A DNA stretch of 64,000 nt from Hygrophila difformis (lineage: Eukaryota; Streptophyta; Magnoliopsida; Lamiales; Acanthaceae). Location: positions 5,134,874-5,198,873 of the forward strand of contig JAOANR010000001.1 of NCBI GenBank assembly GCA_030278955.1, in the 5' to 3' direction. Positions 5,147 through 42,551 of this stretch are shown piece by piece (the stretch's first letter is position 1; every line of letters starts with the position of its first letter). Made by a program: the position numbers and the translations under genes. The notes beneath the pieces were generated by a model, which was not told the DNA's origin, did no database searches, and saw only the letters and a program-made list of their open reading frames with translations.

Positions 5147-5394
5147 TATAATCAATATCAACATCATCTTTAGTTACCAGTGACAATAGAGTATGATTAC
5201 GGCCATTTAAACTGTTTTGCAACATAATTTTTGCTTTAATAACTGCTAGCATTTGTAATTATAAACATTAAAAACTGTGCTATCTATACGTCGCAACCGG
5301 CAATGTGCCTCACCTATAAATTCACGTATGCCCTTTGTCAATAAAATTGCACTTGAATGTTGTCTCAACACATGAGCCATAATAATGTCTTCCT
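5147..5394 (+). promoter_or_regulatory. Promoter of the truncated secreted-protein copy
   Basis: TATAAAT at 5315-5321 lies 80 bp upstream of the ATG at 5395. The whole region is nearly identical to the promoter of the intact gene at 13663, so this copy lost coding sequence, not its promoter. The Helitron ends directly at its upstream edge. Confidence 0.6.
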
Positions 5395-5560
5395 CGGCCG
5401 CTCCTGTTCTGTTTTTCTGGTTTCTAATTGTGACACTGCAGCCGGTGGCATTATCAGCACCACCACCACCACCACCATCTCCTATAACAAGACTTAACCT
5501 TCAAAATTTGTATCATCGTATTACAATGATTATAATCTTGGAAATATTTAACTTTTCACT
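5395..5560 (+). pseudogene. Deletion-truncated copy of the secreted-protein gene
   Basis: The first ~47 codons match the gene at 13663 almost exactly: MSSSAAPVLFFWFL signal peptide, the run of prolines, then TRLNLQNLYHRI. The sequence then jumps from within exon 1 to the start of the intron (TCTTGGAAATATTT), deleting roughly 290 bp including most of exon 1, its stop-equivalent region and the splice donor. What remains could encode a signal peptide and a short tail only. The promoter is intact, so it may still be transcribed. Confidence 0.85.
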
Positions 5561-5766
5561 ATAATCTTCTAGTTGTATGCATTAATTATCAAGTCATAAT
5601 CAATATGAAGCTCATCTTTAGTTATAAGCGATAATAAATAAATCAGAGAGTATAATTATGGACATTCATGGCCATTTAACCTTGCACCATAATTTTTCCT
5701 TGCATTTGTAACTAGGAACATTAAATGGTGTGTTATCCATATGTCTAACTAGCAAGGTGCCTCACC

Positions 5767-5773
5767 TATAAAT
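5767..5773 (+). promoter_or_regulatory. TATA box of secreted-protein gene 1
   Basis: TATAAAT in the conserved context CCTATAAATTC, 66 bp upstream of the ATG at 5833. The same box at a similar distance precedes every member of the array. Confidence 0.65.
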
Positions 5774-5832
5774 TCCCGTATGCCCTTTGTCATAAAATTG
5801 CACTTGAATTTGGTCTCAACACATCAGCCATT

Positions 5833-38398: not shown

Positions 38399-38467
38399 TC
38401 ACGTATGTCCTCTGCGATAAAATTGCACTTGAAAGTTGTCTAAAACCCATCATCAAACACCCCAAAA

Positions 38468-39066
38468 ATGTCTTCCTCAACCTCTCTTGTTTTGTTTCTG
38501 TATTATTCTCTAATTGTGTCGCCGCCGGTTGCGTTAGCAGCACCACCGCGGTCTGGGACGACTGTCCTTTACCTTAAAAATATGTACAGAGGGAACTTCA
38601 TCATGAATCTACAGGTAATTCAAAGTAACCAAAGAGCCCCACAGCCAACGCGTACAGTGTCATTTTCATACTCATTCAGACTAGATGTTATTCCTCGGCC
38701 CCCTACTACTGAGGTACGCTATGATTTTAACATCACTATAACATCGAAGCAACATCGGCCACCCAAGGAGATTCAGAAGGCCATCTTCACGGCTTACAAT
38801 CAAATTACAGACATTGGCTCTGCCTCAATAACTTATATGGCCAATGCCACCGGATTTTATAGACAATCTGCTGCGTAAGTGTCGGCCACATTTCATTCTT
38901 TGTTTCGCAATAGTAACCTGATATATTGTAGTAGTATGTTCTATTCATTTAATTTGTTATTATGTGTTGTAGGGATTCGGATTTTCGAATTGGGACTGGA
39001 CAATTATTCGTGCTCTTGGGCTCGGCCATTCTCAATAGGCTATATAGGCTACCAGCCCCTACTTGA
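38468..39066 (+). CDS. Small secreted protein, array member 6, next to HDA14 (two exons)
   Basis: Exons 38468-38874 and 38973-39066 (donor GTAAGT, acceptor GTGTTGTAG) encode about 166 residues. Signal peptide ~1-25 (LFLYYSLIVSPPVALAA), then TTVLYLKNMYRGNFIMNLQV, a sequon in FNITITS, FTAYNQ and MANATGFYRQ. Exon 2 (DSDFRIGTGQLF...) aligns in DNA with that of members 1 and 2, but much of it is read in another frame, giving an unrelated tail. It stands tail to tail with the deacetylase gene, 296 bp between stop codons, which is the arrangement copied through the array; it may represent the founding locus. Function unknown. Confidence 0.8.
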
Positions 39067-39362
39067 AGATAAGCCGAATTTAAATAAAACTACTGTGGAC
39101 TGTGGTGCAATAGAATTGTCTTCTGAGCCTCCTTCTTTACTTTTAATTTATGTCTTCTATTGTTGCCAAATACTAATATAGAGAATGCAAATTTTCAAGT
39201 ATCCGGACAATAAAGATGGTGGTTGAATAAATATATGTTCAAACATGAACACACACGACTGGTAATAAACCAGAATATATAACCAGTAAAAAACTATCAT
39301 GAATCTTACAGAAGGGAGCTCAAGTCATGAATGTGTGTGCTTGCCTTCTCAATAGCATATTC

Positions 39363-42300
39363 TCACAGTGAGTGTGTGTGCTTGGCCCTCTCAATAGCAT
39401 CCTTTACTTTCTTCGATGGCTCCTCGTACAAGAACGCTGGGTTATCAAACTCCACTGCTAGGCTAGGTTCCCCAAGGAAAGCTCGGAATGTGTCTGCAAC
39501 CGAATGAGAAAGAGATGAAAGGTTATAACCACCTTCCAAGAAAAATACACACCGCCCGCCACATAGATCTCTAGCCAGCTGCTTAATGTTCTGTGCTAGC
39601 ATGTAGTATGTTGCGGTTGTAAACTGCAGGTTTGCCAGCGGATCCAGCACATGAGCGTCATACCTGGAAATGGTTAAGTGTTGAGTAACGTCATTTGCTA
39701 TGACAATTTGGAATGGGGAATTTCGCGTTATGACATAACTTACCCAGCTGAGACAAGTATAATGTCTGGCTTGAACCTCTGAGCACATGGTACTATAACT
39801 TCATTAAACACATTTCGCATGGCTCTGTCACCTGATCCTCCAGGTAATGGTAGATTTAGTGTGGATCCCTCGCCATCTCCACTACCTATCTGATGTATTT
39901 TACCTGTGCCAGGATAGCTCCCATCCTATACATTGAGCATAGACACAAATGAAAATGATCTAGTAACTTTTCCGTAGATTTGAATCTATCGCTGAATTTT
40001 ATGGTCCACAATGGTCATAACTTTTACAAGATGAGAAAGTCATATCCACAATGGCAAAAGTAAATTATGCATCTTTAAAGAAAAAAAAAATGTAAATCGG
40101 CTACATTAATGATTGAAGTGTGTAGCATAGCTTACCTGGTGGGTAGAAAGAAAAAATACATCAGGGTCGTCATAGAAGGCATCATTGGTTCCATTTCCAT
40201 GGTGAACATCAAAATCAATTATAAAGACGCGTTTCAATCCATGTGCACGTTGAGCATAGCGGGCAGCAATAGCTACATTTCCAAAAACACAGAACCCCAT
40301 GGGTCCAGTTGGGACAGCATGGTGACCTGGGGGCCGCACCAAGGCAAAACCTACTGGAGGATCTTCCCTCACTTTTGATGCTGCAACCTGAGTTATCAAA
40401 TTCAAGAAATAATATCATCGATGTTGACTTACATACATTTCATAATTTGTTCAAGGCATGGCACTTAATTCCAACACCCAGCTTGCTACAGTTCAGATAA
40501 ACACAACTATCTAAGGAAAAAACAAGACAAGATTTTCATTAAGAAACTGACATCTTAGAGTGAGACATCACCACTGCATCCACCAATGAAATTCCAGCTC
40601 CAGCTGCCAATATAGACTCTTGGAAGGTCTGTATAATTGAATGTCGAATTCAAGAGGGTTAATAAGATTTCATTTACCTTATGAATGGTAAAAAAGAATA
40701 TCAATAGCACATGAATCTCAAAAGCCTAACTTCAATTGCTAGCCAATGTCATCAGGACAAATATTAGAAGCCTCCTTATCAAAATATTTTCTGAACCATG
40801 AGCTAAAAAATTATGGCATGAGACCAAGAAATATTTTTTTTAAAAAAAAAAATTATAGCATATTTTCTAGGTGATAGTTCATCCAAAGCATTTATATTAC
40901 AATAATAACAACGAACATGAGTTTAAGAAAGCAACCACAAGCAAATTAAAGCAAGAGCTTAAAAGTGTGTTCTCACTGTGGAAGTAGCATAAGTTGGCCC
41001 AGAGCCTTCAATGAAAACAAGTCCTTGTTCTGATGCTTGACTCATTACCTAGGAGCAGAAGTTGCAAACAATTGGATTCACAAGTAATAAATAAGTGAAA
41101 TAACAAGGCACTTCTAATTAGTTCTTATACAAGGATAGATTCAAGACCAAAGTATGATTGTATGAACCAATTTTTGAAATCTAATATGCTATATAAATTT
41201 TACTATTTTACTGAGGGGTACAACATTTTTTGTGTTTCCTGATTCATCATTCAAAGAGAAAATTTGAAGCAGAGATGACACCCAGTTTTGTATTGCTGTC
41301 TACTCTGTTTCAGCCATCAGTTCCTTTTTCTGTTTGGCCTGAAAACTAGAGTTATGTGCCTCATAGTCAGTCAACTAACAAAATAACAGCCCTAGAGAGA
41401 ATTAAACATTTCAAAATATTAATAAAACCAGAAAATGATTGAGTAAAAAGTGTGAAGGATTGTTGCAAGTTATACAGACAGTGACAGAAATCTCAAAAGA
41501 CATTTATACCAACATTCAACTGTCCATTTCAAATTAATTTAACACTCCACCACGAGAACTATGCTAAAAGTTTATGCAGGTTAACCGCTAACCTTCTCAA
41601 GGTTTGATATATAAGCTCTTTCATGAACACTTGCTATATCATCGACTGTAGCAGGTCTGAAATTTTTAAGTTCAATGATCTCTGAGCTCCGAAACTGATC
41701 AGAAGATGGAACGGTGAAAAAGATAAAGAAAAATATAAATACCACTGCAAAAAGTAAAATTTCTTAATAACTTGATTTCAATTGACCCTATCCTACATCA
41801 CACAACTAAATCTATCCAGTGAATTAAATAAAAAACAAGAGAATCAGAGATGCAAAAAAAGGCTATGAAAAGGACGATAAACATATGTATATATCTTCAA
41901 AAACAATCCAAACCACAGAAGACTCAAAAGTTAATGAACCTATCGTCCAGAAAATTAATGAATTCTAAGAAAGAAAGTAAGAAACTTCTTGATTTGCAGA
42001 TTCTACAATGACAATTCTTCACTTTCTGTATCTCAACTGACGTGGTTCAATGAAACCAATATGATGCAAACATAAAAATCAATAATCGAAGCACAAAAGA
42101 TCCAAAGTAGAGGATGCAGAAATCGTGAAGCAAATAGGTGGGCACATGTAAAATAAATGTCTGAAGTTCCAAAGTAGAGGATGCAGGGATCGTGAAGCAA
42201 ATAGGTGGGCACATGTAAAATCAATGTCTAAAGTATAAAAGGTTCAGAAGTGAACAATGCAGTCCTGGTTGCTGAAGCAAATTGGTGGCACATGGAACAT

Positions 42301-42551
42301 CAAATCTTAAGATAAAATTTTGTATGTTAAGCTCGACACTCCAGTCAGGATCATTCAGCATACTCTAAGACCTTGGGAAGATATTGAGTTTTGACTTTTG
42401 AGAATCAAAAGAAAACGGGGAAAAAACGTAGTTTTCTGTATGCGAATTATTCTATTATCATCATCTATTTGTATACCTCTGGCGTCAACTCCATCTTTGC
42501 AAGAGCACCGATAATAGCAGGAACTCTGGAATTACATTCAGGGTGTGAGTC
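39363..42551 (-). CDS. HDA14: HDA14-like histone/lysine deacetylase, 3' seven exons (5' part missing)
   Basis: Exons on the minus strand, in reading order: 42477-42551, 41593-41694, 40977-41048, 40572-40628, 40136-40387, 39744-39925, 39363-39663. Together they give 346 residues in frame to the stop. All boundaries obey GT-AG. Catalytic motifs are present: RPPGHHA, DFDVHHGNG (zinc and charge-relay residues), SAGYDAH and EGGYN. The C-terminus (ERAKHTHSL) and overall sequence match plant HDA14-type class II deacetylases, which remove acetyl groups from lysine; Arabidopsis HDA14 has been reported in chloroplasts. The first visible exon starts inside the domain (DSHPEC), so the N-terminus and any transit peptide lie beyond the gap at 42676 or are lost. 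Whether the gene still works is therefore open. Confidence 0.9.

What the first reader, a model, noticed from the sequence alone, without database searches (positions are those of the whole stretch)
5147..42551. Secreted-protein genes and an HDA14-like deacetylase were amplified together as one duplication unit
Six intact copies, one truncated copy and one promoter-only copy of a small secreted-protein gene alternate with minus-strand fragments of the deacetylase gene (7071, 11970, 14430, 17318, 30655, 31075, 34900, 37223). At 38468-42551 the intact secreted gene and the deacetylase stand tail to tail. The secreted genes keep their frames while every deacetylase copy decays, which suggests selection on the secreted protein only. 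The family is not one I recognise, so this may be an undescribed lineage-specific expansion.
Basis: partly seen in the sequence, partly recalled or inferred. Interest (0 to 1): 0.8.

Follow-up and report, generated by a model that had tools for sequence, protein, structure and literature searches.

The report
Tandem secreted-protein genes dragging deacetylase scraps
In what looks like a plant of the mint order, a fast-changing secreted-protein gene was copied in tandem and dead pieces of the neighbouring deacetylase gene were copied along with it; the copying is ordinary, and the protein family found no convincing match.

Summary
The window is most likely from a Lamiales plant: its HDA14 (exons 2-8) is 91% identical to that of Sesamum alatum. 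It carries six open copies of a secreted-protein gene (S1-S6), one internally deleted copy and one promoter-only copy.

The interpretation needs two corrections. (1) No remnant shows similarity to 41732-42675, which includes exon 2. The copied block most likely held only the 3' part of HDA14, dead on arrival, so its decay says little about selection. (2) Selection on S shows in the reading frame and signal peptide, not the mature protein. Frame retention on three non-overlapping pairs has neutral probability about 1e-12, or 6e-4 under cautious settings, though only open copies were tested. Omega is 0.91 overall, not different from 1; 0.48 for the signal peptide, 1.34 for the mature N-half, 0.73 for the C-half.

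Pfam, NCBIfam, PDB and two protein searches gave no convincing relative; these negatives are weak for so divergent a family. Synteny could not be tested.

The parts
5833..6456 (+). S1, secreted-protein gene; exon 1 5833-6245, intron, exon 2 6354-6456 (model)
   Evidence: open frame, GTAAGT donor and TTGTAG acceptor
13663..14323 (+). S2; exon 1 13663-14081, exon 2 14197-14323 (model)
18698..19280 (+). S3; exon 1 18698-19113, exon 2 19211-19280 (model)
29131..29685 (+). S4; exon 1 29131-29525, exon 2 29619-29685 (model)
33447..34025 (+). S5; exon 1 33447-33859, exon 2 33956-34025 (model)
38468..39066 (+). S6, the copy beside HDA14; exon 1 38468-38874, exon 2 38973-39066 (model; a second acceptor at 38932 is possible)
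5144..5561 (+). truncated S copy: promoter plus about 50 codons from ATG 5385, joined to intron sequence; S2-like
   Evidence: 97.9% identity of 5146-5534 to 13424-13812; translation and tblastn
36853..37103 (+). promoter-only S copy with the CTATAAATTC box; homology ends where the ATG would be
39366..42551 (-). HDA14 exons 8 to 2, open; exon 1 not found in the window
6558..6597 (-). HDA14 intron-3 remnant after S1 (matches 41077-41113)
   Evidence: 53.6 bits; shuffles
7131..7159 (-). HDA14 exon-6 remnant (matches 40296-40325), out of order with respect to the remnant at 6558
   Evidence: 33.7 bits, weak alone; score 37 vs shuffle maximum 28, and 49-column match to the remnant near 35392-35440
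11966..12316 (-). HDA14 exon-3 region remnant, parted from 7131 by a copia insertion
   Evidence: 73.8%, 188 bits
14433..14476 (-). HDA14 intron-3 remnant after S2
   Evidence: 51.8 bits
17318..17618 (-). HDA14 intron-3 remnants before S3
   Evidence: 43.7 and 98.7 bits
30696..30928 (-). HDA14 exon-7 remnants after S4
   Evidence: tblastn 62.5% identity, E 3e-9; blastn 95.1, 33.7 and 50.0 bits
31064..31969 (-). HDA14 intron-3 remnants between S4 and S5
   Evidence: 61.7, 33.7 and 87.8 bits; 31060-31120
34929..35432 (-). HDA14 exon-7 and exon-6 remnants after S5
   Evidence: 96.0 and 34.6 bits
36142..36474 (-). HDA14 exon-3 remnant
   Evidence: 187 bits; 36350-36480
37277..37470 (-). HDA14 intron-3 remnant before S6
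   Evidence: 103 bits

Best explanation
A gene for a small, secreted, cysteine-poor protein stood tail to tail with HDA14 in a (most likely) Lamiales plant. Unequal exchange duplicated a block running from the S promoter through S into HDA14 introns 2-3, leaving out the 5' end of HDA14. The block was duplicated again several times, and insertions and deletions eroded it; at least one S body was lost (promoter-only copy), and the order between S1 and S2 was scrambled or a unit lost there. Shown here: the copies, their common orientation, a shared junction, the absence of 41732-42675 from every remnant found, and frame retention among the open copies. Inferred: unequal crossing over as the agent, and that S6/HDA14 is nearest the ancestral pair. 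Proposed function (inferred, weaker): the S proteins are exported to the apoplast, where the C-half keeps a fold and the fast-changing N-half of the mature protein meets a variable partner such as a microbe, pest or pollen, and extra copies are kept because variety or dose is useful.
For: Order after S5 is exon 7, exon 6, exon 3, as in the intact gene, and the remnants S2-S3 and S4-S5 are also collinear. Remnants at 11966 and 36142 end at nearly the same HDA14 base (41721, 41731) and share about 105 bp further on (12350-12454 vs 36490-36593, 83%). Remnants before S3 and S5 belong to regions alike in three pieces (92%, 87%, 92%) that include the S genes. No blastn row to 41732-42675 apart from a local repeat, and exon 2 finds only chance-level tblastn rows (E 0.66 or worse) besides itself. 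On three non-overlapping pairs, exon-1 indels are in frame in 8 of 8 against 7 of 32 in flanks and intron, Fisher p = 8e-5 (counted by hand, tested). Neutral probability of keeping those frames is 1e-12, or 6e-4 with the lowest divergence estimates and half the indel rate. Omega by part 0.48 / 1.34 / 0.73, p = 6e-7 against one omega. Two aligned N-glycosylation motifs in 6 of 6; 0 or 1 cysteine per modelled protein.
Against: After S1 the remnants come as intron 3 (6558), exon 6 (7131), exon 3 (11966), which is not the order of the intact gene. Exon 4, 5 and 8 remnants were not found by tblastn. Frame tests used only the six copies already known to be open; two of eight copies are broken, so retention is overstated. 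With substitutions alone and cautious settings it is only p = 0.057. Whole-gene omega is not different from 1 (0.91, p = 0.52); the mature N-half is not significantly above 1 (p = 0.067; pooled count p = 0.41), and the part limits were set after seeing the alignment. Exon 2 does not keep frame between groups (5-bp indel between S1 and S2), so C-terminus or splicing is uncertain. S flanks differ from S6 more than most HDA14 remnants differ from HDA14, so S6 may not be the founder (a rough comparison). HDA14 5' of 42675 is not in the window as DNA. No expression data, no usable fold (pLDDT 34 and 43), no outgroup.
Confidence: 0.68

Rival explanations
1. The whole HDA14 gene was duplicated each time and the copies lost function later.
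For: Remnants keep pieces of exons 3, 6 and 7.
Against: No remnant shows exon 2 or anything in 41732-42675, and two end at almost the same base with shared sequence further on. The part 5' of 42675 could be tested only for exon 1, by tblastn, with no convincing match.
Confidence: 0.1
2. The S copies are neutral leftovers; their open frames are due to youth, small size and the choice of open copies, and only S6 or none is a working gene.
For: Overall omega 0.91; S1 against S2 omega 1.19. Substitutions alone under cautious settings give p = 0.057. Two of eight copies are broken.
Against: In-frame indels in 8 of 8 against 7 of 32 outside coding; constrained signal peptide (about 10 of 160 nonsynonymous vs 14 of 56 synonymous changes, p = 4e-4); splice signals kept in 6 of 6. 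I raised this rival from 0.12 to 0.15 for the choice of open copies.
Confidence: 0.15
3. A transposable element (Helitron or Pack-type) captured pieces of S and HDA14 and scattered them locally.
For: Palindromic repeats and two copia elements lie among the copies; the remnants between S1 and S2 are out of order.
Against: All 22 blastn rows have one orientation and the S copies form a head-to-tail array; element-borne pieces would be expected in both orientations. I did not search for Helitron ends.
Confidence: 0.06

Closest known systems
Lineage-specific plant genes arising by local duplication (Arabidopsis set in PMC3049755; passages seen)
   Same: Local duplication, evidence of unequal crossing over for part of the set, and higher evolutionary rate
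   Different: Here six copies keep frame together, and remnants of a neighbour's 3' part lie between them
Papaver S-protein / plant S-protein homologues (SPH; PrsS)
   Same: Small secreted protein with strong divergence among variants (PrsS described so in PMC13033167, passages seen)
   Different: PrsS has four conserved cysteines and no obvious hypervariable block; these proteins have 0 or 1 cysteine and a fast N-half. No SPH match in Pfam, and profile comparison with a 67-residue fragment of SPH15 (6g7g) gives 0.1% probability
Plastid/mitochondrial deacetylase HDA14 (Arabidopsis: PMC5658702, passages seen)
   Same: 39366-42551 is a clear HDA14: 91% identical to Sesamum alatum HDA14 over the exon 2-8 query
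   Different: Exon 1 not found in the window; the other copies are remnants

Membership tests
S-protein homologue (SPH, PF05938; accession recalled) | match to the family profile | tested here: not met
   6 of 6 members scanned against Pfam at E up to 10 (the filters drop most matches above about 0.1); only DUF6687 (1 member, 0.01) and DUF4371 (1 member, 0.21) appear
S-protein homologue (SPH, PF05938; accession recalled) | four conserved cysteines | tested here: not met
   0 or 1 cysteine in each of six modelled proteins; the four-cysteine feature of PrsS from PMC13033167
S-protein homologue (SPH, PF05938; accession recalled) | the beta-strand-rich fold | tested here: inconclusive
   models at mean pLDDT 33.8 and 42.9; no fold search run
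[quoted passage not shown]
   definition in PMC13033167
HDA14 | Hist_deacetyl domain and closest matches named HDA14 in relatives | tested here: met
   PF00850 on the ORF of the last exon; best hit P0001
HDA14 | N-terminal organelle targeting sequence | tested here: inconclusive
   exon 1 not found in the window; N gap at 42676-43175
Secreted protein | N-terminal signal peptide | tested here: inconclusive
   hydrophobic start followed by a VALA/VAFA/VAAA-like site seen by eye in all six; no signal predictor was available

The most novel reading that the evidence does not exclude
The S genes belong to a previously undescribed, cysteine-poor family of hypervariable secreted recognition proteins in Lamiales, diversified by tandem duplication beside HDA14, in which the mature N-half is under diversifying selection.
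Probability: 0.15. Interest if true: 0.7.

Novelty: new member of a known kind. Interest (0 to 1): 0.36.

Why it matters
The duplication mechanism is ordinary, but the passenger remnants act as markers from which the order of duplications can be read. The family has a constrained leader and frame with a freely changing mature half, a pattern expected (inference) of proteins that face changing partners. If relatives and expression confirm it, it would add a cysteine-poor family to the plant secreted proteins that can be tested for recognition roles.

Tried and rejected
SPH membership: the pattern looked suggestive by eye, but Pfam, cysteine count and profile comparison do not support it (only looked up SPH15). 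PDB matches were set aside as chance on biased sequence: protocadherin-15 at E 0.0011 with one sequence (no stretch passing on its own), and three chains at E 0.24-0.62 with the profile. DUF6687 at E 0.01 in 1 of 6 members was set aside. NCBIfam: none in 6 of 6 at E up to 1. Bacterial and archaeal genomes: 39 pattern matches, 0 confirmed. Structure: two AlphaFold2 jobs, both too poor for a fold search, which I did not run. Protein searches: the single-sequence search had 114 candidates, and the alignment search scored only the 7991 candidates sharing most words, perhaps crowded by proline-rich proteins (my guess); neither gave E <= 10. These negatives are weak. Papers: the listings (20 of 146 shown; 12 of 12; 9 of 9; 6 of 6) showed nothing evidently on this gene pair; that is no proof of absence in print. 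On re-check I corrected: the promoter-box count, exon-1 lengths, the remnant order after S1, and the untested 5' part of HDA14.
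Full report
What is there. The window is plant DNA. The deacetylase at 39366-42551 (minus strand) is HDA14; its exon 2-8 protein is 91% identical to Sesamum alatum HDA14, then 89% to Handroanthus and 88% to Paulownia in the order listed (best 120 of 7999 shown), so the source is most likely a Lamiales plant (taxonomy of Sesamum). Arabidopsis HDA14 is a lysine deacetylase found in plastids and mitochondria (PMC5658702, passages seen). Exon 1 was not found in the window: tblastn with the first 120 residues of the Sesamum protein finds exon 2 and otherwise only low-identity or very short matches, the best 29% at E 0.025 inside the copia elements, and 500 N lie at 42676-43175.

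The secreted family. Six open copies were found, with ATGs at 5833, 13663, 18698, 29131, 33447 and 38468. In each, exon 1 (131-139 codons) ends at GTAAGT, which also contains an in-frame stop, and a TTG(C/T)AG acceptor follows. I model two exons, but cannot exclude that the protein simply ends at that stop, because exon 2 does not keep frame between groups (5-bp indel between S1 and S2). A seventh copy at 5144-5561 is a 98% copy of the start of S2 with an internal deletion, and an eighth (36853-37103) is promoter only. CTATAAATTC lies upstream in five of the eight aligned promoters (S1, S2, S6, the truncated and the promoter-only copy); S3, S4 and S5 have TATAAATTC with other bases before it.

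The deacetylase remnants. A blastn of 39200-42675 against the window (E up to 1) printed 22 rows other than self, all in the orientation of the intact gene. Leaving out three rows from the S 3' flank, two from a local repeat and one 24-bp row leaves 16, of which 12 exceed the best of 50 dinucleotide shuffles of 1-38000, 41.0 bits. The weakest, at 7131-7159, is backed by a 49-column match to the remnant near 35392-35440. Pieces of exons 3, 6 and 7 were recognised at the protein level; exons 2, 4, 5 and 8 were not.

How the block was copied. After S5 the remnants run exon 7, exon 6, exon 3, as in the intact gene; the remnants between S2 and S3 and between S4 and S5 are also in order. Against this, between S1 and S2 they run intron 3, exon 6, exon 3, which needs a rearrangement or a lost S unit there. 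Remnants at 11966 and 36142 end at HDA14 positions 41721 and 41731 and share about 105 bp further on (12350-12454 vs 36490-36593, 83%). Those before S3, S5 and S6 end at 41473-41474. No row touches 41732-42675 except a local repeat; DNA 5' of 42675 could not be tested. The simplest reading is a duplicated block from the S promoter to HDA14 introns 2-3. The deacetylase pieces then never had a promoter or exons 1-2, so their decay cannot serve as a control for selection on S. The S3 and S5 regions (17184-19466 and 31538-34216) are alike in three pieces at 92%, 87% and 92%; S4 is about 88% like these, S1 and S2 are 78% like each other, and S6 is the most distant, about 66-69% in its long matches.

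Selection. NG86 omega over 15 pairs runs from 0.50 to 1.19. On the six-gene tree a single omega is 0.91, not different from 1 (p = 0.52). Three parts (limits chosen after seeing the alignment) give 0.48 for the signal peptide, 1.34 for the mature N-half and 0.73 for the C-half, better than one omega at p = 6e-7; the N-half is not significantly above 1 (p = 0.067; pooled counts p = 0.41). Frame retention is the stronger signal. On three non-overlapping pairs (S1-S2, S3-S5, S4-S5) all 8 exon-1 indels are multiples of three, against 7 of 32 in flanks and introns (p = 8e-5). Over all 15 pairs, only S2-S4 shows out-of-frame gaps (5 and 1, summing to 6). The neutral probability of keeping those frames is about 1e-12, or 6e-4 with the lowest divergence estimates and half the indel rate; substitutions alone give 0.0025 and 0.057. 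These tests used only copies known beforehand to be open (six of eight), which inflates them. With that caution, the S genes look kept as genes while half of the mature protein changes freely.

What the protein is. It has two aligned N-glycosylation motifs in 6 of 6 and 0 or 1 cysteine. It matched no Pfam or NCBIfam family convincingly, no PDB chain convincingly and no protein at E <= 10 in two searches. The protein collection does hold Lamiales proteins, but its search needs shared five-residue words, so relatives at about 40% identity can be missed. AlphaFold2 gave mean pLDDT 33.8 and 42.9. Membership in the S-protein homologue family was considered and not supported.

Verdict. The argument from decaying deacetylases is not. 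Selection on the secreted genes is likely real but of a looser kind than 'protein conserved'. Whether the family is new, and whether the pair is ancestral, needs plant genomes that were not available here; the genome search did not answer in five tries.

Noticed in passing
42676-43175: A run of exactly 500 N just upstream of HDA14 exon 2; exon 1 was not found in the window, so the right part may be a misjoin or a very long intron full of transposons.
   Followed up: partly
43176-47096 and 50410-54350: Two direct copies 99.1% identical over 3.9 kb, the first starting right after the N gap; young repeat or assembly duplication.
   Followed up: no
7226-11964 and 22882-27824: Two young copia elements (LTR identity 100% and 99.8%; flanking TATTA and CAATC repeats read as target-site duplications), the first lying among the remnants between S1 and S2.
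   Followed up: yes
6727-7060, 12780-13158, 16758-17137, 27821-28136, 29860-30205: A palindromic MITE-like repeat family recurring through the array, matching in both orientations.
   Followed up: partly
56481-62441: Gypsy-type retroelement in two frames (gag/protease and RT/RNase H/integrase) on the minus strand.
   Followed up: partly
13126-13382: A perfect 129-bp tandem duplication upstream of S2.
   Followed up: no
35767-35918: A 76-bp tandem duplication in a stretch without an HDA14 match that interrupts the remnants after S5.
   Followed up: no
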